Shown: positions 30,869 to 46,127 of the stretch, piece after piece | Position numbering within the stretch: position 1 is the first letter of the stretch | Layout of the letters: the number at the start of each line of letters is the position of its first letter | Source: an uncultured Alphaproteobacteria bacterium | Lineage (GTDB): Bacteria; Pseudomonadota; Alphaproteobacteria; Rhodobacterales; Rhodobacteraceae | DNA: 64,000 bases | Direction: 5' to 3' | Assembly: GCA_929200255.1 (NCBI GenBank) | Contig: CAKMYZ010000004.1 | Location: forward strand, 124,001-188,000 | Notes under the pieces: generated by a model | Told to the model about the DNA's origin: nothing | Database searches by the model: none | What the model saw: the letters and a program-made list of their open reading frames with translations, nothing else | Translations under genes and position numbers: made by a program

Positions 30869-31345
30869 TCAGGGGTTTCCCGAAGACAGCGAAATCACCT
30901 GACGCTCACCATCCGAAGAGATGACAACGACCGAGGTGTCCGTGATCTCTTCGATCTCCCAGTTCCCGATCTTCTCTCCGACCCTCCGTCTGAGAAGGTC
31001 GGGACGATTGGACAACCGCATCAAGGCAATGCGATCATTCTCGTCATTCACAATACCTGTCAGGCTTAACGTGATAGCGACAGGTGCTGGCTCTGCCACC
31101 GTGGCGATCACAGGGGGCCGGCGCGTGATATGGAACAGCGGACGCTCAACAAGGTTTTGGGCCCCTTGCGCAAGCACTTCTATTGCATTTGGTGCGTCGT
31201 CGGACGGGGTGGATTGTGTTGTTGGCGGTGGTGCTGCCTGACCATCGCGACCCAGTGGCATCCAAATGACACCAGCCAAAACAACGCAAATCAGCCCCGC
31301 CGCGAGCGGGACCGTGGTTTGGATATGCGGAGACAGTTTGATCAT
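30869..31345 (-). CDS. gspC: Type II secretion protein C-like (GspC/PilP-like)
   Basis: Single N-terminal TM, C-terminal LSLTGIVNDENDRIALMRLSNRPDLLRRRVGEKIGNWEIEEITDTSVVV (HR-domain-like); within gsp cluster. Confidence 0.75.
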   Translation of the reverse strand: MIKLSPHIQTTVPLAAGLICVVLAGVIWMPLGRDGQAAPPPTTQSTPSDDAPNAIEVLAQGAQNLVERPLFHITRRPPVIATVAEPAPVAITLSLTGIVNDENDRIALMRLSNRPDLLRRRVGEKIGNWEIEEITDTSVVVISSDGERQVISLSSGNP

Positions 31346-31875
31346 TGTGATGCAAACCCGCTCAACTTGAGCTGGATCGCCAAGGGTCGCTCATCCACGT
31401 TGCGATTGTTGCTGCGCGCACGGCGGAGCGAGATACTGTCGACCACAATCATTGGGTCGTGGCTTGCCAGACTTTCCATGAAGCTGCCAAGCTCGTTTTC
31501 CTGTACGACGCCATTGAGCGTCAGAGCTAGCCGCAGAGATCCGTTCAATGGTTCGACCTGATCGGCACGAATAACCTCTAGCCTGACTTGATATTCGTCC
31601 GCCAATGCCTGCATGTCACTTTGCATCTGCGCTTGCGCCAGTTGCGGTGTCTCACTGACATAGAATGTATTTTGCATCAGCGCGCCCGCCTGTGGCTGTG
31701 CGGCACGTTCCGCCATTGCAATGGCATCCAGCTGGTCACTGATCCCCGCGTATTTGCTGCGGGCGATATTCGTCAGAACCAGTGTGAGCACAATCAGCAG
31801 GATAGATGTTCCAACAACCAGCAGTGTCCCGAAACGCCGAACAAGTGTTGGGTTATGAAAGGTAAAGTTACTCAT
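31342..31875 (-). CDS. gspM: Type II secretion protein M-like (GspM)
   Basis: Single TM, periplasmic ferredoxin-like segment; between gspL- and gspC-like genes. Confidence 0.65.
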   Translation of the reverse strand: MSNFTFHNPTLVRRFGTLLVVGTSILLIVLTLVLTNIARSKYAGISDQLDAIAMAERAAQPQAGALMQNTFYVSETPQLAQAQMQSDMQALADEYQVRLEVIRADQVEPLNGSLRLALTLNGVVQENELGSFMESLASHDPMIVVDSISLRRARSNNRNVDERPLAIQLKLSGFASQ

Positions 31876-32939
31876 CAGATTTCACCTGTCAGAACAGCGT
31901 TGATGCGGAACCGTTCGAGATTTTGGGTGTTGTCGCGGGTCACTGGAGAACCAAATTCGATGTCCTTCAGCGAGGGTAGTGCGGCTAGCAGCCGTGTCAC
32001 CTCAGCAGCTGAAGGTGCAAACCCGATGATTGTAACGTCCTCGCCATCAACCAGCATCTGTTCCAGCCAGACGCCGTCTGGCAGCGCGTTGGCCATGGTG
32101 CCGATGATTGTCAGGCGGGCGTTTCCCATGTCACGTCGTTCTTGCAGGCCACGGGTGACGGCCTGTTCTGCCGCCAATTCACGTAGTTTGGCCGTTGCTT
32201 CGTTAGCTTGTTCCGTCACGCTATTGCTACGTATGGATTGGACGAAGAAAAGTGCGGTGGCGGAGGCAAAGAATAGGGTAAAGGCGCCGATCGGGAACCG
32301 CAGTGTGGGTGGAATTTTCCTGAGATGTGCCAAAATGCTTCCAGCGGATGCCAGCCGCGAGGGCTTATCGAGCCAATACGGTGCAACCGCGACACGAAGC
32401 GAGCCATCCGGGCGGTGCCGCCGCGCAAGGTTGATGGATTTGCCTGTGTGCTCCATGGCATCAAGAACCCAATCCACGGCTCCCTTCAACACGATCGCCG
32501 CCTCAACGATCCAGTCGCCGTTGGGCGTTTCCTTTGCCGACCAAAACCAGACAGATTGATCACTTTGTATGGGAGAGCGGAATTCCAGTTCTGTCTCGAT
32601 GATTGCCTCAAGGTCGTTGAATGGGCCGTTGGGAACCTGGAACGTCAGATCAAAAGCGGTGCGTCCGGCAAAGACGATATCAATCTCTTTTTCAGGCAGA
32701 TCTTCCAGACAAATCGTCAATTCACCTAAATTCGAGAAATTCATCACATCTTCGTCCAGCCGCAGGGCATAGGATGTGTCGCCAAGAAAAAGTTCAGGCG
32801 GGGGCGATTTCTTGGGGATTCGCGGCGGTTCGTGCAGCATCGAGATGCTGGTCGACGCAAGATTCGCCAATTTAGTGAAGGTATTAACGGATTTTTGTGC
32901 CGCCGATGGGTTAGATGGCATGTCTGGTGATGGTGTCAT
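31875..32939 (-). CDS. gspL: Type II secretion protein L-like (GspL/PilN-like)
   Basis: Cytoplasmic actin-like N-terminal region, TM, PilN-like C-terminus (LTIIGTMANALPDGVWLEQMLVDGEDVTIIGFAPSAAEVTRLLAAL). Confidence 0.75.
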   Translation of the reverse strand: MTPSPDMPSNPSAAQKSVNTFTKLANLASTSISMLHEPPRIPKKSPPPELFLGDTSYALRLDEDVMNFSNLGELTICLEDLPEKEIDIVFAGRTAFDLTFQVPNGPFNDLEAIIETELEFRSPIQSDQSVWFWSAKETPNGDWIVEAAIVLKGAVDWVLDAMEHTGKSINLARRHRPDGSLRVAVAPYWLDKPSRLASAGSILAHLRKIPPTLRFPIGAFTLFFASATALFFVQSIRSNSVTEQANEATAKLRELAAEQAVTRGLQERRDMGNARLTIIGTMANALPDGVWLEQMLVDGEDVTIIGFAPSAAEVTRLLAALPSLKDIEFGSPVTRDNTQNLERFRINAVLTGEI

Positions 32940-33023: not shown

Positions 33024-34340
33024 TTACGCGATACCCCGGGTAAACAGGTTGTGGTTTGTGAAAGAGTGGTTTGGGAAGACCGTCGAGATCAGACCCTCAG
33101 GCATACCCATATGGAGGACCATGATTTCACCAACGACATCACGGAATTCAGTGACATGCGGCAGGTAGCGCCCGAACCGTAGCTGATCTTCAGCAATTGA
33201 TGTGACGTCCGGTCCAAGACCGCCCATTGTCGAGCCACCAAATGCGAACCAGGATGACGCGTGCCCGTGGTCGGTACCGATTGTGCCGTTCTCTTTGACG
33301 GTTCGGCCGAATTCGGTGCAAACCAGAACCACAACATCATCGATGCCTGTACCCATGTCACGATAGAACGTCAGCAGGTCGTTGGCGCCCTGGCGCATCC
33401 GGCTATGATAGCGAAAGTTCGGGTCGCTAAAGCGGTTTGCATTGTTTGCGCCCGGGATTTGGTTGGAGTGCGTATCCCAACCAATGTTGAAGTCCATCGC
33501 AGCCACTTCAAGCGGCACGCCAGCCTTCAACAATTGTGCGGCTAGGCGCAGACCACGGCCAAGGCCGCTGTTGGAATATTCCATACCCCCTGCCTCGACC
33601 ACATAGTTCAATCCAGCGGCCTGCACTTCGGCAATCGAATCAAGCATCACCAGCTGGTTGTCACGCAGATCACCTTCCAGCCCAGGCTGGTCGATCTCGT
33701 GCATAGCGATGTCGCGCATCATATCCGTCAAGCGGTTATCAGCACAGCCAGAGCCGCTGCAAAGGACGGGGTGCTCTAAGTTGAAGCCATTGCGGTCATT
33801 CACGGCGGGGACGACAATACTGCCACGCTGTTCGGTGCTGAGCGATCTTTTCCCCAGAACGGCGCCGCGCAGTGGGTGGTCTGGCCCGGTGATGTTCTGC
33901 ATGTAGCGGTTCAGATAGCCGTCGATGATGTTGTTGCGCGCACCAGTGCCAATCCAGCGCTGGTTATCAAAGTGCGACCGGTTACCGTCGCTGATCGCTG
34001 TGGCGGGAGCGATCATCAGGCGGCCAGCATCCCAGATTTCCATCAGCGGCTCAAGATTCGGGTTCAGGGCACGATAGGTGCTACCAAGGCTGATCGCTGA
34101 GTTTGCGTCGCTTGACACGGGGGCATCAATCGCCAGATTGGGCCGATGTTGATAATAGGCCATGTCTCCGACAGGTGGGACAAGGTGTAGACCATCGGCC
34201 CCACCACGCATGAATATCTTGATGAAAGACTTACCTTCGGTGCTTTGGCCGAAAGAAAACTTTGGTGCGCCGGCGACACCTGCCATGCTTGCAGCGGCCA
34301 CCATTGCTGAGGACTTCAGGAATTCTCTACGGTTTTTCAA
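33024..34340 (-). CDS. DUF1501 domain-containing protein with Tat-like signal
   Basis: MKNRREFLKSSAMVAAASMAG twin-arginine signal; VCTEFGRTVKENGTIGTDHGHASSWFAFGG typical of DUF1501. Confidence 0.9.
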   Translation of the reverse strand: MKNRREFLKSSAMVAAASMAGVAGAPKFSFGQSTEGKSFIKIFMRGGADGLHLVPPVGDMAYYQHRPNLAIDAPVSSDANSAISLGSTYRALNPNLEPLMEIWDAGRLMIAPATAISDGNRSHFDNQRWIGTGARNNIIDGYLNRYMQNITGPDHPLRGAVLGKRSLSTEQRGSIVVPAVNDRNGFNLEHPVLCSGSGCADNRLTDMMRDIAMHEIDQPGLEGDLRDNQLVMLDSIAEVQAAGLNYVVEAGGMEYSNSGLGRGLRLAAQLLKAGVPLEVAAMDFNIGWDTHSNQIPGANNANRFSDPNFRYHSRMRQGANDLLTFYRDMGTGIDDVVVLVCTEFGRTVKENGTIGTDHGHASSWFAFGGSTMGGLGPDVTSIAEDQLRFGRYLPHVTEFRDVVGEIMVLHMGMPEGLISTVFPNHSFTNHNLFTRGIA

Positions 34341-34376
34341 TTTGGATACCTTTCCTAATCGGATGGGAGCCGAGGC

Positions 34377-37001
34377 TTATTGCAGTTGGAGGCTTGGGAG
34401 GACGACCAGAAGACCGACCGCACGTTGGTACGCTTCGTTTTCGTTCTGACCAACGGGATCAAAAATACCGTCTTCGTCCTTCAGCAGTTCAATGAGGGCT
34501 TCATACTCTTCCAGTGTGAACCGGTCTGCGGTTGCGATCGTCAGCAGGTAAGCCGCAACTTCTTCTGCGGTCACAAGCCCAGCATCGGCCACCATAGTAC
34601 CTACATCAAAATTGTAGTCATTTTCACGGAAAGAGACTTCAACGATCGACCGATATTGACCCATCAACGCAGCAGAGTTCATCCACGCATCACCATTTTC
34701 GGGCAACCCGGTGGGAACAAGGAATGTGAAGGGGTCATAGCCTGCGTTGACAGCACCGGTCCGGAAGCGCTCGAAGAACGTGCCATCGTCGTCACCGGCG
34801 TCCGGTGACATCCCGAGGGCACGGATTACACCAACAACGAATTCGTAAGGCGTACGGCCCTTGTTGCGCTGATATTCAACATTTGTGATGAAGTCTGGTG
34901 CGGTCAGGACGGCACGCAGAACCTCGCCCATATCGCCATCTGTTGCGACCCATGCTGCTGTGCACAGATCAACAAAGCTTGCCGGCGGTTCATCCGCCAC
35001 AAACTTTTGGACGATCTTGCCGCAAACATAAGAGTGTGTGCGCGGATCATCGGCGAGGATCGCAATCAACTCTTCGCCTTCTTGGACACCGGCAGCACCG
35101 CTGCGGCCAGGAATTGTTACGTTCAGGAAGGGGATCACCTTGTCGTCGGTGTCATGGCGATCCGCACGAAAATTGAAGTCGTATGTTGCAGAGTCATCTT
35201 CATCGTTGGGATTGGTGCGTACGTAGTTCCAACCGGTAAAGATCTCTGACACGGCCACAACGTCGTCGTCGCCATAGCCACCATCAACACCAACGGTGTG
35301 AAGTTCCAGAATCTCGCGACCGTAGTTTTCGTTGATGTTGCCGACACGGCTTTGGTCGTTATCGAGGAATTGCGACATCAAAGGGCTGCGTGCGGAGTAG
35401 AGCAGTAGATCTTCAAAGCGACCAAAGGCGTTCTCGCGGAAGAATACGCGATCATCGATCGCCTGGACGCGAACGCTGCTGTTTTTATTGGCAGCGTGGA
35501 AGTGGTTGCTCCAGAATTGGCCCATCACATCCTGCAACTGCTTCTCTGAAAACGCGGAATGCGCCATGTTGTGGAAGAACAAGCGGTTGGTAATGTTGCC
35601 ATTGCTGGTGTTATCACGGCGTAACATCTGGTCGAAGTTCATGGACCGGAATGCTGCATCGCTGATGCTGTCGGGGTTCAGCTGTTCTGCAACATAGGCA
35701 TTGAAACCCATCGCACGGACCCGCGTGTACAGATCTTCGGTTGCGCCAAAGCTCATGCGGGACAGGGCCTGACCGACGCCGTCGGCAGTAACGCCGGTTG
35801 TGAATTCGTAAGATATTGGCGCGCTTGCAACATTCGAGTTGCTTGCGGATCCGCCGGTCAGCGTTACCGCAACGTCACCGGTGGTCAAATCTTCCGGGAA
35901 GAGGCGTACAGCAAACTGACCCGTTGCTCTGCCCACATCGACCGTTGTTGTACGGCCAGAGGGTGCAATCGTGACGTTGACGATGTCGAATGTCAGCGGG
36001 TCCATCACTGCCCCGAACAGCGTTTGGCCGGTGTAGGACACAACACCGGCAGCTGTTGCGCCAGCGGTGATCTGCACTGCTTCTGTCAATGTTACATCGG
36101 TTGGCGGTGTCAGCGCACTGGAAGTAGCCGTGCCATCAGGCACAGGTGTTGGTGTGGGGGTCGGTGTTGGTGTGGGGGTTGGTGTGGGGGTTGGTGTTGG
36201 TGTTGGTGTTGGTGTGGGGGTCGGTGTTGGTGTAGGGGTCGGCGTCGGTGTGTTGCCACCGCCACCACCAGTTGCCTGCATCACAGAGTTGATCGCACCC
36301 TCAACGGACCTGCGAAACACACCGCCACCACCGCCACTACGGCTACCGCCGTCAGAACCGGGTGCTGTCGCGCTTTGAGTTGCCGAAGCTTCGGCTATGC
36401 GCGCAGAAGTTGTTTTAGAAGAGGTGCCACCAATCACAAATGGTTCGCGGGTTGTTGTCGTATTCGCTGACGCGACTTGCATTTCTGTCGCAGGTGATGC
36501 CTGAGGAGACGAGGAACCAGATACTGGAGAAATCGAAGCCAAGAGCGTCTGTGCCTGCTCGTCTGTCAGCGCTTGTGCCACATTCGCAAGGCTCGCTGGG
36601 GTATCACCCAAAGCATAGAATGAAACCAATGCAATCTGCTCGACTGATAGGTCTTGCCCATCGAATTCGATCAGGTGATCGCCCGCTTTCAGCGACGTGA
36701 TCGCCCGAAATGGCTGTGCTGCGGCGTTGCCGCCAGTGGGTACGACCAAAATAGCTGACCCATCAACGGAGAGTGTCAGGCTGCGGTCAGCAGGAGCTGT
36801 GAAAACATATGTGCCGTCAGCTGGAACGGAAACACGCAGCGGAATAATGGTCGAACGCGTTTCAAGGGAAGCTGCGGTGAGCGCACTATCGGCGTTACCA
36901 AGTTTATTTGCGATTGCGGCTTCTTGAGCCAGGGCACTCGTGGCCATGGCGGAGACAAAAATTGGTGTGGCGACGAGCAGTCTGGTGCTGACAAGTTTCA
37001 T
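34377..37001 (-). CDS. DUF1800 domain-containing secreted protein with (Thr-Pro)n linker
   Basis: Signal peptide [27 protein letters not shown]-terminal [29 protein letters not shown]...[31 protein letters not shown] (DUF1800); start placed at 37001. Confidence 0.9.
36140..36255. repeat. Hexanucleotide microsatellite encoding (TP)n in the DUF1800 gene
   Basis: Tandem NGGNGT units (plus strand) encoding ~18 Thr-Pro repeats on - strand. Confidence 0.95.
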
Positions 37002-37329
37002 GTTTGTGCTCTCTGCTAGTTGTTTCGTCGGCAGGCTGTGTGCAGGCCAACCAGGTAAACTGAATATGAACGAAGATGCTTTGGGAGATCGCATGAAATC
37101 AACTTCGTCCATAGTTTTGACACGAATAGGCGTGAAAACGCTTAGAACCGTTGCCAATTCGCGGACACTTGCCAGAATATTAGCGATATATCCATCTTTT
37201 TGCGCTAATTAGGCCAACTTGCCGCAAACTTAGACATGGATTTACCCTGTCCGGACCAACTACTGTTGCAAATGGAAACAGTAGAATCACGCGGCAGCTC
37301 TATCTGCCCTCGAATCAAAGGCAAAAGAC

Positions 37330-39012
37330 TTGCTTGTTGACGTCCCAATGCGCGGCCGCATACCGGCGATTTTCCTCGAGAATGGAACGCTGTCTGATCA
37401 CGATCTACGAAAGGTCAATGATGCAGCGGCGGCGACCGGTCAGCCGGTGCGCGCAGTGCTAGACCGACTTGGGCTGATTTCGCAGAAGGAATGGGCGCGC
37501 GCCTGTGCTGAACACCTGAATAGCCCATTGGTCACGTTGGATGATATGCCAGCGCGATTGCCAGAAGACCCGCGCTTGTCAGCGGACTACCTGCGCCGCT
37601 CGGCCATTGTTCCACTTGAAATTGCAGCGGACCGCGCCTTCTTTGCCGTCGCCGATCCCTTTGATGACAATGCCATTGCTGCGCTTGAGATGATTTTCGG
37701 CGCGGGGCTGTCTGTGGGCATTGCCACCGACCGCGACATTGAAATGGCGATGACCCGCGATAAAGCTGCGGCGCAGGCTGAGGCGCCCGATGCCAGCGAC
37801 CTGGTCGCACCTGCGGGTGGGCTTGACCTTGATACTGACAAGCTGACAGAGCTCGCGAACAATGCGCCGACTGTCCGTTATTTGGAAACACTGTTTGATG
37901 CCGCAATTGAGATGCGCGCAACGGATATCCATCTTGAGCCTGTACAGGCTGCGACGTCTGCGCGCGTGCGCTTGCGGGTCGATGGTGAGTTGACCGAAGT
38001 ACAAAGCCCTGACCCCGGTATTTACGAAGGTGTCGTGTCCCGCCTCAAGATCCTTGCCGGGATGGACATCAGCGAACGCCGTCTGCCGCAGGATGGCCGT
38101 ATCCGTCAGCGCCTGTCTGGGCGCGAGATCGATATGCGTGTGGCCAGCGCGCCGATGATCCACGGCGAAGCGATTGTGCTGCGCCTGTTGGATAATCTTG
38201 AAGGTCTTTCAAAACTGGAAGACCTGCAATTGCCCGCGCATGTGTCAGAACGGTTGGGCGCCGCAATTGCGCAACCCAATGGTCTGATCCTTGTGACGGG
38301 GCCGACGGGCAGCGGTAAGACAACAACATTGCATGCAGCCATGAACGCGCTGAATGACATCCGGCGCAAGATTGTTACCATTGAAAACCCCGTTGAAATC
38401 CAGAGCCCCGGCTTGCAGCAGATCGAGGTGAATGCCGAATTGGGTTGGACCTTTGCTGCCGCCTTGCGCACCGTGCTGCGTCACGATCCTGATGTCATAA
38501 TGGTGGGCGAAATCCGTGATAGTGAGACAGCTGAACTTGCGGTGCGCGCCGCCATGACCGGCCACCTTGTGTTTTCCACGTTGCACACTAACAGTGCCCA
38601 TGACGCTGCCACCCGGCTGATTGATCTTGGTGTGCCGGAATATCTGATGAAATCAGTGGCTCGTCTTGTCGCGGCACAGCGTCTTGTGCGGCGGGTCTGC
38701 CCGAATTGTGCCGTAGACGCTGACGATCAGGCCCGCACACTACTTACACAGCTGGGTGGGCGCAGGGTTGAGCATACAAACCCCGTCGCATGGAATCTGA
38801 AAAAAGCTGTAGGTTGTGATGCCTGTAACCAGACCGGCTACCGGGGTCGAATAGCCCTGTTTGAGGCAATGGAACCTGAAGAACTTGCCGTTGCGGATAG
38901 CGATGCGCCAACTGGCGTGCGCACGATGGCAACTGAAGGCCTGCGTATGATTGCGGAGGGGCAGACGACTTTGGAAGAAGTGATACGCGTTCTTGGTATG
39001 AAATCCTTCTAA
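37330..39012 (+). CDS. gspE: Type II secretion ATPase GspE
   Basis: GPTGSGKTTTLHAAMNALN Walker A; VGEIRDSETAELAVRAAMTGHLVFSTLHTN; zinc motif CPNC...CDAC. Confidence 0.95.
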   Translation: MLVDVPMRGRIPAIFLENGTLSDHDLRKVNDAAAATGQPVRAVLDRLGLISQKEWARACAEHLNSPLVTLDDMPARLPEDPRLSADYLRRSAIVPLEIAADRAFFAVADPFDDNAIAALEMIFGAGLSVGIATDRDIEMAMTRDKAAAQAEAPDASDLVAPAGGLDLDTDKLTELANNAPTVRYLETLFDAAIEMRATDIHLEPVQAATSARVRLRVDGELTEVQSPDPGIYEGVVSRLKILAGMDISERRLPQDGRIRQRLSGREIDMRVASAPMIHGEAIVLRLLDNLEGLSKLEDLQLPAHVSERLGAAIAQPNGLILVTGPTGSGKTTTLHAAMNALNDIRRKIVTIENPVEIQSPGLQQIEVNAELGWTFAAALRTVLRHDPDVIMVGEIRDSETAELAVRAAMTGHLVFSTLHTNSAHDAATRLIDLGVPEYLMKSVARLVAAQRLVRRVCPNCAVDADDQARTLLTQLGGRRVEHTNPVAWNLKKAVGCDACNQTGYRGRIALFEAMEPEELAVADSDAPTGVRTMATEGLRMIAEGQTTLEEVIRVLGMKSF

Positions 39013-39024
39013 AGGCAGGACAAA

Positions 39025-40254
39025 GTGGAGCAGGGGCAGAAGTCATTTACATATGTCGCGCGTGATGCGACGGGGGCAAAGCAGTCTGGTCAGATCTTGG
39101 GTGTTGACCAAAAAGATGCCACGCGTGCCCTGCGCGAACTGGGCCTGTTTCCGGTTAGCCTGACTGCTGGCGGTCACGCCGGGGGGGCAACCACCAAAGG
39201 TTTAGCCCGACGCCGGGCTGATCAGCTTACACCGCGGCAAACCACCGATTTTCTGGTGCGACTTGCCAAACTGTCGGGCCGCCAGATTCAGTCGGAGCGT
39301 GCACTGGCCATTATCGGGGATGGTGGCGAAGACCCGATCTCAAAAACCGCGCTGCGTGTGCGGGACCGGTTGCGCGAGGGCGCGGCCCTGTCAGCGGCTT
39401 TGCAGGAAAAGGCAGGTGTGGATGATCCGGTCACCTTGTCACTGATCAGCGGGGCAGAGGTTTCGGGCGACATGGCAACAGCGCTGTCAACGGCCGCCGA
39501 TATCATGCAGAACAGGCTTGATACCCGCCGCCGGATTGTGACGGGCCTGATGTATCCCGGTATTCTGCTGACGGTCGCGGTGCTGTCTGTCGGCCTTATC
39601 ATGGTTGCGATCATTCCGCAGTTCGTGCCCTTGGTTGAAGACCGGATCGAGCTGGTGCCAACAATGGGCCGTGCTGTTTTTGCTGTGTCCAGCCTGCTTT
39701 CCGCACTTTGGCCGATCATCGCACTTGGGATGATTGGGCTGGGTCTGGCAGTCTATCTAGCGGCGCGGCGCGGATTGCTGGCTGGAATACTGGCCCGGCT
39801 GGGCAATCGCGTACCGATTATTCGCCGCCTTGTGCTGCGCAATCAGATGATGCTGTTGTTACATGTGCTTGGCGCCATGCTCAGCCGTGAAATCACGCTG
39901 AGCGGGGCGTTGCGTGTGGTGTCCAAGTCCGCGCCAGGTGGGCCGGTCCGTACCGGAATGGCCGATGTGACCGAACAGGTCGAAAGCGGCGCGGCCCTTT
40001 CGACGGCACTGCGCACAACAGACCTGCTGCCGCGCGAGTCGATCGAGATGATCCGCATCGGCGAAGAGGCCGGTGATCTGGGTGGCATGATAAGCCGGAC
40101 CTCAGGCGATATGCGGGAAGCCGCTGATCGTGACCTAGAGAGATTTTTGTTACTTTTCCAACCCGCACTTATTGTAGGTGTCGGGTTGATGATCGGAGTA
40201 AGCCTTTATGCCCTGTTTTCAGCTATCGTTTCCGTCAATGCCATCTCGTTCTAG
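39025..40254 (+). CDS. gspF: Type II secretion inner-membrane platform protein GspF
   Basis: SFTYVARDATGAKQSGQI N-terminus; repeated T2SSF domains; GTG start. Confidence 0.94.
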   Translation: MEQGQKSFTYVARDATGAKQSGQILGVDQKDATRALRELGLFPVSLTAGGHAGGATTKGLARRRADQLTPRQTTDFLVRLAKLSGRQIQSERALAIIGDGGEDPISKTALRVRDRLREGAALSAALQEKAGVDDPVTLSLISGAEVSGDMATALSTAADIMQNRLDTRRRIVTGLMYPGILLTVAVLSVGLIMVAIIPQFVPLVEDRIELVPTMGRAVFAVSSLLSALWPIIALGMIGLGLAVYLAARRGLLAGILARLGNRVPIIRRLVLRNQMMLLLHVLGAMLSREITLSGALRVVSKSAPGGPVRTGMADVTEQVESGAALSTALRTTDLLPRESIEMIRIGEEAGDLGGMISRTSGDMREAADRDLERFLLLFQPALIVGVGLMIGVSLYALFSAIVSVNAISF

Positions 40255-40675
40255 AAGACGGCCCGCGCGCCGCAGGCCAGCAGAGGCGGGTTTCTCATTG
40301 GTCGAGATGCTGGTTGTCGTCGCCATTGTCGGCCTGTTGATCGGGCTGGTGGGCACCGGTGCGATCCGGCAACTCCAATCTTCGCGGGTCAGTGCCGCTG
40401 AGGCGCAGATTTCACAATTGCGCAGCGCATTGGACATTTTTCTGATCGAAACGGGACGCTATCCAACCCAGGACGAAGGGCTAACCGCGCTGATTGCGAA
40501 CCCGACCAATGTACCCGGCTGGGCGGGCCCCTACCTGCGTGATGGCAACCTGCCCACTGATCCATGGGGCGGTGCCTACATCTATATGCTCGAGCAGGGT
40601 CAGGTCCGAGTGCGGTCGCTTGGCGCGGACCAGAGGGCCGGCGGTACTGGCGTTGATGCCGATGTGGAAGGTTAG
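40238..40675 (+). CDS. gspG: Type II secretion major pseudopilin GspG
   Basis: EAGFSLVEMLVVVAIVGLLIGL prepilin motif; TQDEGLTALIANPTNVPGWAGPYLRDGNLPTDPWGGAY. Confidence 0.95.
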   Translation: MPSRSRRRPARRRPAEAGFSLVEMLVVVAIVGLLIGLVGTGAIRQLQSSRVSAAEAQISQLRSALDIFLIETGRYPTQDEGLTALIANPTNVPGWAGPYLRDGNLPTDPWGGAYIYMLEQGQVRVRSLGADQRAGGTGVDADVEG

Positions 40676-41090
40676 ACGCCCGACACGAGACCGCAGCGCG
40701 CAGGGTTTTGCTGCGGTAGAGATGCTGGTCACAGTTGCCATTGTGGTGCTGATCGGCACGATCTCAATCTTTGCGCTGGGCCGTACTGACAAGGCACAGT
40801 TGGAAAACGATGTGGCGTCTATCGCGCTGATGTTTCAACAGGCCCGTTTACAAGCCGCTGAAACAGGTCGCCCGGTCGAGGTGATTTATTCGCAACCAGA
40901 CATGAGCATATCAACACCGCTTGAGATCCATGTTTTTGGGCGCGGTGTGACCAGCCCGACAGAGTCGGCGACAATCATCATCCGCCCCTCAGGCGAAAGC
41001 GAAGGTCTGGAACTGGAACTTGTGTCTGGTGATCTGAACCGCACCGTTGGGGTTGACTGGCTCACCGGGCAAGTGAGGGTGTCACCATGA
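40656..41090 (+). CDS. gspH: Type II secretion minor pseudopilin GspH
   Basis: AQGFAAVEMLVTVAIVVLIGTISIFAL prepilin motif; position in operon. Confidence 0.85.
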   Translation: MPMWKVRRPTRDRSAQGFAAVEMLVTVAIVVLIGTISIFALGRTDKAQLENDVASIALMFQQARLQAAETGRPVEVIYSQPDMSISTPLEIHVFGRGVTSPTESATIIIRPSGESEGLELELVSGDLNRTVGVDWLTGQVRVSP

Positions 41091-41485
41091 GGCGTCGCCG
41101 CGCATCGCGAGGCTTTACCCTCGTGGAAACGCTGGTGTCGCTCGCCATTGCGACGATGGCAGTGGCGGGTTTCTATCAGGCGCTGTCGCAAGGCCTGTTC
41201 ATGGAGCGTCGCGCCGGCACGCAGGCAGAACAGATGCTGGTGGCCACGCAGGTGCTGGACCGTGTCGGCATCGACCTGCCTTTGCGCATCGGTTTGCAAG
41301 ACAGCGGCACGATGCAAGGATTGGAATGGTCATTGGCTGTCACTGACCGTGGCACTGCCGATATGGCGTTAGGCCCGGTCCAGCCCGGAGAGCTGCTGTT
41401 TATATATGTCACTGTCGGTTCGACGCGCGCCGATGGCAGCCCGTTGGTGCTGCGTGGTATTCGGTATCGGCAGACGCCGCTATGA
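41087..41485 (+). CDS. gspI: Type II secretion minor pseudopilin GspI
   Basis: SRGFTLVETLVSLAIATMAVAGFYQAL prepilin motif. Confidence 0.88.
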   Translation: MRRRRASRGFTLVETLVSLAIATMAVAGFYQALSQGLFMERRAGTQAEQMLVATQVLDRVGIDLPLRIGLQDSGTMQGLEWSLAVTDRGTADMALGPVQPGELLFIYVTVGSTRADGSPLVLRGIRYRQTPL

Positions 41486-42153
41486 TATCGCGCAGAAAAT
41501 ATCGCCGCCGTCAGGCCCAACGCGGCTTTGTGCTGGCTGAGGCGCTGGTTGCCTTGACGGTTGCGGCCCTGACCCTTGCGTTGATGACAAGTGCGACCTG
41601 GGGCCTGCGTCAAACGGCCATGCAGCCTAGCCGGTTGCAGCAAGAGGCCACTGATTGGCTTACTGCGCGCCGTGTCTTGCAGGCCTGGGCCGGGTCGGCG
41701 ACGACGGATGGCATCGAAGAGGTGGCCGGGCGGTTTGTCGGCTCGCCAACCCGGATGCGGCTGGTGGTTGATGATGGCACGATCCGGACGGACCGCCCGG
41801 TGATGATCAGCCTTGATATTGCACGGGGCGAAGATGGATTTTATCGCCTTGATGCATCGCGCCACTTTGACATACGCGATGTGCGGCTGGTGGATGAAAC
41901 TGCCCGCCCCAGCACCGTGATCATCACGGATGCGCCTTTGCGGCTTGTTTACTTCTTTGCGTCGCGTAACAGCCTTAATGGCGGTGACTGGACGTATGAG
42001 CCGCAGCCAGAACAAGGCTTGCCCTCTGCCGTCGCGTTGGAGCGCGGTGCGGAACGTATGATCGTGGCCAGGATGCCTGCGACACACAGTGCGTCTTGCG
42101 TGGCGCGCACTGGAATTGTCGGGTTGGAGAATAACGCGTGCGCATTGCGATGA
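41482..42153 (+). CDS. gspJ: Type II secretion minor pseudopilin GspJ
   Basis: QRGFVLAEALVALTVAALTLALM prepilin-like motif; position in operon. Confidence 0.8.
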   Translation: MISRRKYRRRQAQRGFVLAEALVALTVAALTLALMTSATWGLRQTAMQPSRLQQEATDWLTARRVLQAWAGSATTDGIEEVAGRFVGSPTRMRLVVDDGTIRTDRPVMISLDIARGEDGFYRLDASRHFDIRDVRLVDETARPSTVIITDAPLRLVYFFASRNSLNGGDWTYEPQPEQGLPSAVALERGAERMIVARMPATHSASCVARTGIVGLENNACALR

Positions 42154-42989
42154 CCCTCCCCACCAGAGGTCGCTTTCGCGGGTTTATCTTGCTGACTGTC
42201 CTTTGGATGTCGCTGGGAATGCTGCTGGCCGCGGCAAGTTATCTGGCGACGCAGCGCCAGACGGCCCTGTCAACGCGGGCCGAGGTGGAAACCGGGCGCG
42301 CGGTTGAACTGGCCCGAAGCGGGCTGAACGTCGCGCTGGCTGATCTGGGTCGCTATGAAGCCGATCAGCCACGCAGCGCGCGTGACGGCTCTGCCGTGAC
42401 GATCACAATGGCAGAAGGGCAGGTGACCTACCGGATATATGATGAGGGCGGCAAGCTCGATATCAATCAGGCGCCGGTGCAACTTCTGGGGCCAACGTTG
42501 CAGCAACTTGGCGACGGACAAGGCATTGATGCATTCGACGCTGTGACGATCGCACGGGCCATTATCACACAACGCGGCGAAGACGGTGCCCGCGGCAGTT
42601 TCCGTTCAATCGCGCTGTTGCTGTCTGAGCTTGGTTTCCCGCAAGAGGCCAGTATTGATGCCCGCCGTATTTTGACAACGTATAACGTTGACGAACAGAT
42701 CAACCCAGTCACGGCCCCGCCTGAACTGCTGGCCGCAATACCGGGGCTAGGGCCAAGCGATGTAAGCACCATCGTTGAGCGGCGCAGTCAGGGGCTTTCT
42801 ATGCCGCGGTTGGGGAGTGCGTCTGTCTGGCTTGGGGGGACAGAGGGCCCGGTCTATACCGTGCAGGCCGAAGGCGTTTTGACCAGCGGCGTGCGTGCGC
42901 AGATTATCGCGACAGTGGCTATTCAGGGCCTTAGCTTTCGGGGTGGTCGCACCGAATACGATTTCCTGGGCATGGAAATCCTCAGGTGA
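42138..42989 (+). CDS. gspK: Type II secretion minor pseudopilin GspK
   Basis: RGFILLTVLWMSLGMLLAAASYLA; YRIYDEGGKLDINQAPVQLL; IPGLGPSDVSTIVERR. Confidence 0.88.
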   Translation: MRIAMTLPTRGRFRGFILLTVLWMSLGMLLAAASYLATQRQTALSTRAEVETGRAVELARSGLNVALADLGRYEADQPRSARDGSAVTITMAEGQVTYRIYDEGGKLDINQAPVQLLGPTLQQLGDGQGIDAFDAVTIARAIITQRGEDGARGSFRSIALLLSELGFPQEASIDARRILTTYNVDEQINPVTAPPELLAAIPGLGPSDVSTIVERRSQGLSMPRLGSASVWLGGTEGPVYTVQAEGVLTSGVRAQIIATVAIQGLSFRGGRTEYDFLGMEILR

Positions 42990-43636
42990 GTAGCGCGCTG
43001 ATCACGGGCGGTTTGTCTTTGCTGGTCTTGTGCATTGCACTGTTTCTGGGGCCGCTGCCATTTGTTGTGCGGGGGTATCTGAGGGCCGGTTTCGGACCCA
43101 CAACAGCACGGCGTTGGACGCGGCCAACAACTCTTGGTTTTGGCATTGGCCTGATCTCAGCAGTGGTGGCGATCACCATGATTGATGCCAGATTTGCGCT
43201 GGGCGCGGCGCTGCTTTGTCTGTTGTTTGTTTTGGCGAGCATTGATTGGCAGTGGCGGTGGTTACCTATCGAATGGACGCTGGGCGTCATCGCGCTGGGG
43301 GTTATTTTCGGCTTTCAGTCAGGTCATCCGCTTCAGGTGCTGGTGCAAATGGTGGTCCCTGCGCTGGCTTTGTTGATTATGCGACAAACCGTGCTTTGGG
43401 TCGTAAAAAAAGAGGCGATGGGCCTTGGTGACATTTGGCTGGTGCTCGGATTGGGGGCCTTCCTCACAATGTCGCAGAGCTTTTTCCTCATTGGGTTTTC
43501 GGCGCTATCCGGATTGGGCGAAGTGGCACTCCGTCGCGTTTGGAGCGGCGCGTCGACGCAAAACAAAGTCGTGTCATACGGGACACACCTGTGTATCATT
43601 TTCGTCATTATCCGCAATTTCCCAACATTCTGGTAA
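42986..43636 (+). CDS. gspO: Prepilin peptidase (A24, peptidase domain only)
   Basis: ASIDWQWRWLP and KKEAMGLGDIWLVLGLGAFL (GxGD aspartyl motif), multi-TM; GTG start. Confidence 0.82.
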   Translation: MSSALITGGLSLLVLCIALFLGPLPFVVRGYLRAGFGPTTARRWTRPTTLGFGIGLISAVVAITMIDARFALGAALLCLLFVLASIDWQWRWLPIEWTLGVIALGVIFGFQSGHPLQVLVQMVVPALALLIMRQTVLWVVKKEAMGLGDIWLVLGLGAFLTMSQSFFLIGFSALSGLGEVALRRVWSGASTQNKVVSYGTHLCIIFVIIRNFPTFW

Positions 43637-43703: not shown

Positions 43704-46127
43704 ATGAGGCAGAGTATGAAAAAGTTTATGGCAATCACGGCTGCGGCTGTGATCCTGTCGGCTTGTGAGAATCTTCCACAAGTGGATAGGACAGAAGGTA
43801 ATACTGACCTGCGCGGATGGCAGCTGGCCAATATTTTTGGAAACAACAGCGATTCTGCGGGATCAAATCGTCAGCAGGGGCGCGTGACAGGTGGTCAGAA
43901 TGTGCGTGCCGGGCAGGGCACGATCTTTCCGGGCCGTCAGCCGCTTCTGGTGGACAGTGACTTTGTCAATGAAAACGGCGAACGGACCGTTTCGCTAAAC
44001 CTCGTTGGTGTTGATATCGAATCTGCCGCCGCTGCCATTTTGGGTGAGCTGTTGCAGATCAACTATGTGATTGATCCCGGCGTGCAGGGGACGGTGAATA
44101 TCAGGTCATCTCAGCCTGTGACCCGGACCACTGCGATTGAGGTGTTCGAACTTGCGTTGAAGCAGAACAATGCGGTGCTTGTGCGTCGCGGGGATATCTT
44201 TGCCATCGCGCCCTTGTCGGCTGACTTGTCGATTTCACCCTCCACGGCACGCGATGTTCTGCCGGGCTACACGCTGCGTGTTATTCCACTGCGCAATATT
44301 GGCGCGCAGGAGATGGCCGCGATTTTGCAACCCTTTGCAGGTGACGGTATTGTCGGCATTGATGCGCAACGTAACATTCTGGTTCTCGCCGGTACGTCTG
44401 TCGATCAGCAATCCTGGCAGGAAACCATTCAGAGCTTTGACGTCGACTGGCTTGCCAACCGTTCGGTCGGTATCTTCCCGATCAATGGTCGGTCGGCCCA
44501 GTCGATCGTGAACGGGCTTGAGCGTGTTGTCGAAACGGATGAAGCCTTTGAGCCGATTGCTGTCTTTGAGGTGATCCCGGAAAACAACTCGATCCTTGCT
44601 GTGGCCAAGACGCCGCGTGCGCTAGAGAATGTTGCCGTCTGGATCAGCCGTTTGACGCAGGACGGCGCAAACGACGCGCAAGTGTATTCATATGACATGA
44701 AATATGCCCGTGCGGCTGATATCGCGCCAACCTTGTCGCAGATCCTTGGTATTTCGGTTGAAACAACAACCGAAGACGCAGAGGTCATTGAGGCAAGTGC
44801 GGATTTCTTCACACCGCAGGGGACGCTGAACGCGACACGTGTCGTGGCCAGCGAAGCAACAAATACGCTTTTGATCCACTCAACACCTGATGAGTACAAC
44901 CGTATCCTTGGCATTCTGCATCGCCTGGACGTGCCACAGAGGCAGGTACTGGTCGAGGCCACGATTGTCGAAGTTTCGCTGAACAATGACCTACGCTACG
45001 GTGTGCAGTACTTCCTCGAAGATGGTGGTGGTCGTCTGGGCCTGACCCAGGGTGAGACAATCAACGTTTCGCCAACCCTGCCAGGGTTCAGTTTCACAAT
45101 GGGTGGCAACCCTGCCAACGCTGTGATTGACGCCTTGGACACGGTGACCCGGATCAATGTGATCTCGTCGCCTAACCTGATGATCCTGAACAATGAATCT
45201 GCCCGTCTGGTGGTGGGTGATCAGGTGCCAACATCCGTGCGCACTGCGCAGGATGGCACGACAGCCGATGATGTCTTTGTGAACACGGTCGAATATCGCG
45301 ACACTGGTGTGATCTTTGAAGTGACACCACGCATCAACTCATCAGGTTCCGTCATCCTGAACATCGGCCAAGAGGTGAGCCTTGTGGGTGAAACCGATCC
45401 CGCCACAGGCAACCCGATTATTTCGCAGCGTGTCATCAACAGCTCAGTCTCTGTCGACAGCGGTGAGACGATTGTGCTGGGTGGTTTGTTCTCTGACAGC
45501 CGGACCTCCAGCAATGGCGGCATCCCGATCCTGAAGGATCTGCCCGTTGCAGGTCACCTGTTTGGCAATTCGACCGATGGTCGCGCACAGACCGAGCTTT
45601 TGGTACTGATCACGCCACGGATCGTGAACAATGCCATGGACGCCCGCCGTGTGACACAGCAGTTGCGCTCTCGTGTGCAGTCGTTGCAGTCCGCTGGCCC
45701 GTCATTGAGCACGAATGTGAATGTGCCATCAATGCGCAGCACGAACTCGGGCCTGATCATGGACGCAAGTGAGGCCAATCGTGCTGCGATTGCCGAGGCG
45801 ACGCGTGCCGCGATGGCAGCTCCGGCAGCGGTCGAAGCGCCAGCGGCGATTGCAGTGCCCGCGCCGGTTGCGGTGACGCCAGCTGCTGCCAGCCAAATGC
45901 CTGCGGGTCGCCATATCGCTGTCTTGGGGTCGTTCAGTTCGGCTGACAATGCCCAGAGCCATTGGGCCAATCTGGTCAGCGCAAACGCAGCGGTCCTTGG
46001 TCAGATGACCCCAAGTTTCCGTCAGGCTGGTGGTTTGACGATGGTGACTGTGGGGCCCATGTCGCGCGACGCGGCCAGCCAGATCTGCATTGATGTGAAG
46101 ACAGATTGCTTTACGGCGACGCAGTAG
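43704..46127 (+). CDS. gspD: Type II secretion secretin GspD, lipoprotein signal plus C-terminal SPOR-like domain
   Basis: MKKFMAITAAAVILSAC lipobox; VNLVGVDIESAAAAILGELLQINYVIDPGVQGTVNIRSSQPV; secretin core RINVISSPNLMILNNESARLVVGDQVP; C-terminal HIAVLGSFSSADNAQSHWANLVSANAAVLG...VTVGPMS. Confidence 0.94.
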   Translation: MRQSMKKFMAITAAAVILSACENLPQVDRTEGNTDLRGWQLANIFGNNSDSAGSNRQQGRVTGGQNVRAGQGTIFPGRQPLLVDSDFVNENGERTVSLNLVGVDIESAAAAILGELLQINYVIDPGVQGTVNIRSSQPVTRTTAIEVFELALKQNNAVLVRRGDIFAIAPLSADLSISPSTARDVLPGYTLRVIPLRNIGAQEMAAILQPFAGDGIVGIDAQRNILVLAGTSVDQQSWQETIQSFDVDWLANRSVGIFPINGRSAQSIVNGLERVVETDEAFEPIAVFEVIPENNSILAVAKTPRALENVAVWISRLTQDGANDAQVYSYDMKYARAADIAPTLSQILGISVETTTEDAEVIEASADFFTPQGTLNATRVVASEATNTLLIHSTPDEYNRILGILHRLDVPQRQVLVEATIVEVSLNNDLRYGVQYFLEDGGGRLGLTQGETINVSPTLPGFSFTMGGNPANAVIDALDTVTRINVISSPNLMILNNESARLVVGDQVPTSVRTAQDGTTADDVFVNTVEYRDTGVIFEVTPRINSSGSVILNIGQEVSLVGETDPATGNPIISQRVINSSVSVDSGETIVLGGLFSDSRTSSNGGIPILKDLPVAGHLFGNSTDGRAQTELLVLITPRIVNNAMDARRVTQQLRSRVQSLQSAGPSLSTNVNVPSMRSTNSGLIMDASEANRAAIAEATRAAMAAPAAVEAPAAIAVPAPVAVTPAAASQMPAGRHIAVLGSFSSADNAQSHWANLVSANAAVLGQMTPSFRQAGGLTMVTVGPMSRDAASQICIDVKTDCFTATQ

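What the first reader, a model, noticed from the sequence alone, without database searches (positions are those of the whole stretch)
43704..46127. GspD secretin with both a lipobox and a C-terminal SPOR-like domain
The N-terminus MKKFMAITAAAVILSAC/ENLP is a lipoprotein signal, recalling self-piloting liposecretins such as HxcQ and explaining the missing pilotin. After an Ala/Pro-rich linker, the last ~75 residues (RHIAVLGSFSSADNAQSHWANLVSANAAVLGQMTPSFRQAGGLTMVTVGPMSRDAA) resemble SPOR domains that bind denuded septal peptidoglycan. A secretin combining self-targeting with a possible division-site/peptidoglycan anchor is unusual and suggests septal or polar placement of the secretion machine.
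Basis: partly seen in the sequence, partly recalled or inferred. Interest (0 to 1): 0.72.

Follow-up and report, generated by a model that had tools for sequence, protein, structure and literature searches.

The report
Secretin lipoprotein carrying a SPOR-fold tail
The outer-membrane pore protein of a bacterial protein-export machine carries at its far end a small domain of the kind that cell-division proteins use to grip the cell wall; the domain is real and maintained by selection, but it has lost the side chains normally used for that grip, so it is probably a wall anchor with altered specificity and not a proven septum-targeting tag.

Summary
Window 43716-46127 (+) encodes a GspD type II secretin (TIGR02517, 416 bits) with a lipobox (LSAC) and a C-terminal SPOR domain (PF05036, 26.7 bits against a cut-off of 21). 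AlphaFold2 gives a SPOR-like fold (pLDDT 89); the best solved matches include the CwlC and RlpA SPOR domains. Nineteen other Rhodobacteraceae genomes carry it, and 14 of 57 genomes of the genus. It is under strong purifying selection, unlike its linker, so it probably works. It is rare: Pfam finds SPOR in 2 of 58 alphaproteobacterial GspDs, in unrelated branches; another bears OmpA there.

The lipobox is commonplace in such secretins. A SPOR domain on a T2SS secretin is known (Legionella LspD), though N-terminally. The conserved glutamine and key arginine by which SPOR domains grip denuded glycan are absent from all 19 Rhodobacteraceae GspD-SPORs compared, whereas the glutamine is present in 29 of 29 other Rhodobacteraceae SPORs; the conserved phenylalanine remains. 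I favour a cell-wall tether with altered recognition; septal targeting is untested and weakened.

The machine is consistently linked to a DUF1501/DUF1800 pair, its likely substrates. New variant of a known kind.

The parts
43716..46127 (+). gspD, T2SS liposecretin with C-terminal SPOR-fold domain (803 aa from the likelier start; ORF opens at 43704)
43755..43766 (+). lipobox LSAC, acylation Cys21 (numbering from 43704)
   Evidence: sequence; Cys invariant in orthologues; lipobox pattern in all 19
43995..44198 (+). N0 domain (PF21305)
44691..44945 (+). best-scoring Secretin_N stretch (PF03958; three stretches in all)
45132..45626 (+). secretin barrel domain (PF00263)
45681..45902 (+). Ala/Pro-rich linker, residues 660-733, about 74 aa, weakly conserved
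45906..46124 (+). SPOR-fold domain (PF05036 match at residues 736-799)
45921..45923 (+). Val740, at the position of the conserved glycan-binding Gln (RlpA Q270, FtsN Q251)
46041..46043 (+). Met780, at the position of RlpA R309 / FtsN R285
37330..39012 (+). gspE ATPase (T2SSE, MshEN)
39025..40254 (+). gspF
40208..40675 (+). gspG major pseudopilin
   Evidence: TIGR01710 over cut-off
40494..42989 (+). gspH, gspI, gspJ, gspK minor pseudopilins (four ORFs; the first ORF as listed begins inside gspG, its pseudopilin part lies further in)
   Evidence: order conserved
42986..43636 (+). prepilin peptidase (Peptidase_A24), gspO-like
34377..37157 (-). DUF1800 protein, divergent from gspE; candidate substrate
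   Evidence: linkage
33024..34340 (-). DUF1501 protein with a weak Tat-signal match; candidate substrate
30869..32939 (-). inner-membrane platform: gspL-like (PilN, 31875-32939), gspM (T2SSM_b, 31342-31875), short gspC/PilP-like ORF (30869-31345, no Pfam hit, role inferred)
   Evidence: homologues beside T2SS genes in other loci

Best explanation
This is the outer-membrane secretin of a complete T2SS that probably exports a linked DUF1501/DUF1800 pair. A lipidated N-terminus carries the monomer to the outer membrane without a pilotin. After the barrel, a flexible linker of about 74 residues dangles a SPOR-fold domain into the periplasm from each subunit, giving a ring of about 15 low-affinity grips that tether the pore to the cell wall. 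The domain descends from denuded-glycan-binding SPOR domains but has lost the Gln and Arg that read the muramic-acid carboxylate, so it probably binds peptidoglycan in an altered or relaxed way and works mainly as an anchor, not as a strict septal tag. Shown: domain architecture, fold (predicted model), conservation, selection, loss of the binding side chains, operon. Inferred: acylation, periplasmic placement of the tail and 15-fold copy number (from general knowledge of GspD structures), wall binding, substrates.
For: Architecture and fold. Constraint: dN/dS about 0.02-0.05 for core and 0.025-0.08 for SPOR in close pairs where it can be estimated, against mostly 0.12-0.33 for the linker outside the very closest pairs. 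SPOR kept in 20 of 21 members of the Rhodobacteraceae clade. No T2SSB, PulS/OutS or AspS found, so neither a known wall-linking scaffold nor a pilotin was seen. Wall-binding domains joined the secretin C terminus on separate branches: canonical Gln-bearing SPOR in L061 and L139, divergent SPOR-like in L166, OmpA in L119. Legionella LspD and PilQ AMIN are functional analogues. The Phe that shapes the glycan groove is kept in 19 of 19, and most published glycan contacts are main-chain.
Against: Gln270-equivalent 0 of 19 and Arg309-equivalent 0 of 19 in the clade, although other SPORs mostly keep them. No binding data. One orthologue (L036) lacks the domain altogether, so secretion does not strictly need it. 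The T2SSB search was weakly controlled (no control genome passed the cut-off).
Confidence: 0.45

Rival explanations
1. One reading: the SPOR domain binds denuded septal glycan and places the T2SS at the division site or new pole.
For: SPOR fold and Pfam match; conserved Phe and main-chain groove; PilQ is recruited to division sites through AMIN domains.
Against: The Gln whose mutation reduces septal localisation of FtsN and DamX is Val, Tyr, Met or His in all 19; the R309 position has no Arg. 29 of 29 other Rhodobacteraceae SPORs keep the Gln, so the loss is specific to this protein.
Confidence: 0.22
2. The SPOR fold was repurposed for protein contacts: it clamps neighbouring subunits, replaces the pilotin-binding S-domain function, or recognises GspC or the DUF1501/DUF1800 cargo.
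For: Loss of glycan-reading side chains together with strong purifying selection; consistent linkage to the DUF pair.
Against: The positions invariant or nearly invariant across the domain (Trp, Gly-Pro, two Cys, Phe, Ala) look like fold positions; no conserved new surface patch was identified. L061 carries a canonical SPOR on GspD and no DUF pair was found in its locus.
Confidence: 0.25
3. The tail is a decaying domain remnant without function.
For: Pfam score falls below the cut-off in some relatives (L045 19.7, L056 12.3 bits); L036 lost it.
Against: dN/dS of 0.025-0.08 in close pairs, below the linker; the fold-defining positions and Cys pair are kept in 19 sequences.
Confidence: 0.04

Closest known systems
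Legionella LspD (T2SS secretin with predicted SPOR domain)
   Same: T2SS secretin fused to a SPOR domain; no canonical pilotin, GspA or GspB reported (PMC6617341, PMC9239104)
   Different: LspD has SPOR at the N terminus before N0 and no lipoprotein signal; here SPOR is C-terminal behind a long linker and there is a lipobox
HxcQ / XpsD liposecretins
   Same: N-terminal lipobox on the secretin itself, pilotin not found
   Different: No SPOR domain is described for them in the papers read
PilQ with AMIN domains (type IVa pilus)
   Same: Secretin with its own peptidoglycan-binding domain, shown to direct midcell recruitment (PMC5285504)
   Different: Different domain, N-terminal, binding demonstrated; pilus, not T2SS
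GspB/OutB and GspA
   Same: Tie the T2SS secretin to the cell wall (PMC9239104)
   Different: Separate proteins, not part of the secretin
FtsN-type SPOR proteins (L001 in the same genome)
   Same: SPOR fold, shared Trp and Cys positions
   Different: They keep the glycan-binding Gln and usually the Arg; GspD-SPOR is shorter in two loops and has lost both

Membership tests
GspD T2SS secretin | TIGR02517 over cut-off; N0, Secretin_N and Secretin domains | tested here: met
   416 bits against 351; Pfam
GspD T2SS secretin | Located with other T2SS genes | tested here: met
   E, F, G, H, I, J, K, O, then D; L and M nearby on the other strand
SPOR domain (PF05036) | Profile score over gathering cut-off | tested here: met
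   26.7 against 21 bits; some orthologues fall below it
SPOR domain (PF05036) | SPOR fold | tested here: met
   AF2 pLDDT 89.1; CwlC TM 0.72, RlpA SPOR 0.65 (E-values only about 1e-3)
Denuded-glycan-binding SPOR | Conserved Gln (RlpA Q270) | tested here: not met
   0 of 19 GspD-SPORs; 29 of 29 other Rhodobacteraceae SPORs
Denuded-glycan-binding SPOR | Basic patch, Arg at R309 / R311 positions | tested here: inconclusive
   0 of 19 at both positions; an Arg on the neighbouring strand in many members could partly substitute, not resolved
Denuded-glycan-binding SPOR | Phe at F274 position | tested here: met
   19 of 19
Denuded-glycan-binding SPOR | Binds denuded peptidoglycan; septal localisation | not testable with these tools
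   needs experiment
Liposecretin (HxcQ-like) | Lipobox with invariant Cys | tested here: met
Liposecretin (HxcQ-like) | No PulS/OutS or AspS pilotin | tested here: met
   no match in own genome, E. coli control positive
Liposecretin (HxcQ-like) | Acylation and Lol-dependent self-piloting | not testable with these tools
   needs labelling experiment

The most novel reading that the evidence does not exclude
A SPOR domain that has given up denuded-glycan recognition and been kept under selection on a secretin to bind something else, either intact peptidoglycan or a T2SS partner or cargo: a SPOR fold with a new ligand.
Probability: 0.35. Interest if true: 0.6.

Novelty: new variant of a known kind. 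Interest (0 to 1): 0.43.

Why it matters
How a secretin ring is fixed in the wall differs between machines, and GspB, GspA, AMIN and N-terminal SPOR are the solutions found in the papers read. Here a C-terminal wall-domain arose on separate alphaproteobacterial branches (SPOR at least twice, OmpA once), which suggests a recurring need. The group also offers a natural comparison: canonical SPOR (L061, L139), altered SPOR (20 Rhodobacteraceae), and loss (L036), which makes the role of the glycan-binding Gln in secretin placement directly testable.

Tried and rejected
Chance match: rejected by Pfam score, fold model and 19 orthologues. Common alphaproteobacterial GspD element: rejected, 2 of 58 by Pfam, and no C-terminal SPOR seen in the gammaproteobacterial tails read. 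Decaying tail: disfavoured by dN/dS. Single origin of all GspD-SPORs: the tree needs four label changes and the well-supported branches force at least two; L166's place is unsure (long branch). Origin from the division-type (FtsN-like) SPOR: clear for L061, L139 and L166, unresolved for the window's own subclade, where the other SPOR profile scores slightly better. Pairwise BLAST of the window SPOR with the two other SPORs of its genome was uninformative. PDB sequence search gave CwlC and FtsN at the top but not significantly. A literature search for a T2SS with DUF1501/DUF1800 found nothing.

Full report
What is there. The ORF at 43704-46127 (+) encodes 807 aa. NCBIfam calls it GspD above cut-off (416 against 351 bits). 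Pfam gives N0, three Secretin_N stretches, Secretin, and SPOR at 736-799 with 26.7 bits, cut-off 21.

Is the SPOR real? An AlphaFold2 model of residues 735-807 built on 20 related sequences has mean pLDDT 89.1 and the order E-H-H-E-E-H-E. Foldseek's top hit in the PDB is the CwlC SPOR (TM 0.72), with the RlpA SPOR in complex with denuded glycan third (TM 0.65), both at probability 1.00 though E-values are only about 1e-3; the de novo ferredoxin folds mixed in have TM near 0.35. The genome holds two other SPOR proteins: L001, FtsN-like by its place beside a nagZ-like gene, and L002, next to a D-alanyl-D-alanine carboxypeptidase-like gene (gene identities read from sequence, not tested).

How widespread. 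A genome-contig scan gave 19 Rhodobacteraceae loci (Yoonia, Loktanella, Litoreibacter, Jannaschia, Silicimonas and unnamed) with the C-terminal SPOR, one Neomegalonema relative without it (L057), and a remote alphaproteobacterium, L061, with it. In the window's genus 14 of 57 genomes carry it; in a family sample of 397 genomes few carry a close relative at all, and one of these, L036, lacks the SPOR. Among 58 GspDs from a class-wide draw (including the window) Pfam finds SPOR in two, the window and L139, and OmpA in one, L119. L166 has a SPOR-like tail recognised by an FtsN-type profile (27.7 bits) but not by Pfam. In a maximum-likelihood tree of the GspD core, the Rhodobacteraceae clade is well supported and L036 nests inside it, so it probably lost the domain; L061 and L139 sit elsewhere; well-supported branches force at least two changes.

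The lipobox. Present in all 19 (pattern search), but also in 36 of 59 class-survey GspDs and 49 of 58 other relatives by the same crude pattern. It is the rule, not the oddity. No PulS/OutS or AspS pilotin was found in the genome, with E. coli positive as control. No GspB was found, but that control was weak.

Does it read denuded glycan? In RlpA the direct side-chain contacts are Q270, R302, R309 and R311, with F274 and L307 hydrophobic; Q251 and R285 of FtsN and Q351 of DamX are the matching residues whose mutation reduces septal localisation (PMC6895207). In the 19 Rhodobacteraceae GspD-SPORs compared (the window and 18 orthologues) the Gln is Val (10), Tyr (7), Met (1) or His (1); the R309 position is never Arg; the Phe is always kept. 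In 29 readable SPORs from other proteins of Rhodobacteraceae the Gln is always present. L061 and L139 keep it. This is specific loss. It does not prove loss of binding, because most contacts in RlpA are main-chain and an Arg on the neighbouring strand in many members could partly replace the patch (inference, not modelled).

Is it maintained? In close pairs, dN/dS is about 0.025-0.08 for SPOR, near the core's 0.02-0.05, while the linker is mostly 0.12-0.33 outside the very closest pairs; synonymous sites are saturated in more distant pairs, so those values were not used.

Context. The gene order E-F-G-H-I-J-K-O-D is conserved in the relatives, and a divergent DUF1800-DUF1501 pair lies upstream in nearly all loci long enough to show it; L049 has the platform genes there instead. 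All 14 genus genomes with this GspD also have DUF1800, 12 of them about 8 kb away on the same contig, the other two on different contigs. DUF1800 occurs without this T2SS too (28 of 57 genomes have it), so the tie is one-way. DUF1501 has a weak Tat-signal match and DUF1800 a long Thr-Pro repeat, fitting exported proteins; that they are the cargo is inference. No paper linking them to T2SS was found.

Comparison with what is known. Legionella LspD is a T2SS secretin with a predicted SPOR domain, N-terminal, without lipoprotein features. HxcQ is the self-piloting precedent. PilQ AMIN domains show that a secretin's own wall-binding domain can drive midcell recruitment. The present protein combines lipid anchor and C-terminal SPOR; I found no description of that arrangement in the library searched, which misses most subscription journals.

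Verdict. Observation confirmed. Interpretation partly supported: the domains are right, the lipobox is commonplace, and the septal claim is weakened by the loss of the residues that would make it. The best reading is a selected wall tether with altered recognition (0.45), with protein-contact repurposing (0.25) and septal placement (0.22) as live rivals.

Noticed in passing
window 33024-37157 (-): A DUF1501/DUF1800 pair is tightly linked to this T2SS across Rhodobacteraceae; DUF1800 carries a long Thr-Pro repeat. Likely cargo; no paper found on the link.
   Followed up: partly
L119:1339-4755 (+): An alphaproteobacterial GspD with a very long Pro-rich tail ending in an OmpA-family domain (PF00691, 30 bits), a different wall-binding domain at the same end.
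   Followed up: partly
L036:1465-3546 (+): An orthologue inside the SPOR-bearing clade that ends before the linker and SPOR, probably a secondary loss.
   Followed up: partly
G000 contigs C37, C23 and C35 (L173, L174, L175): The same genome encodes further secretins: two without a SPOR tail (682 and 674 aa) pass the GspD model, a third (763 aa open frame) matches weakly.
   Followed up: partly
G022:C1:1745477-1747354 and G827:C27:5792-6802: Second GspD matches with in-frame stops, possibly decaying copies.
   Followed up: no
window 30869-31345 (-): Short ORF beside gspM with a PilP/GspC-like look but no Pfam match; probably a reduced GspC.
   Followed up: no
window 45906-46124: Two Cys (C795, C802) are invariant in the domain alignment of GspD-SPORs and shared with FtsN-type SPORs; they could form a disulfide.
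   Followed up: no
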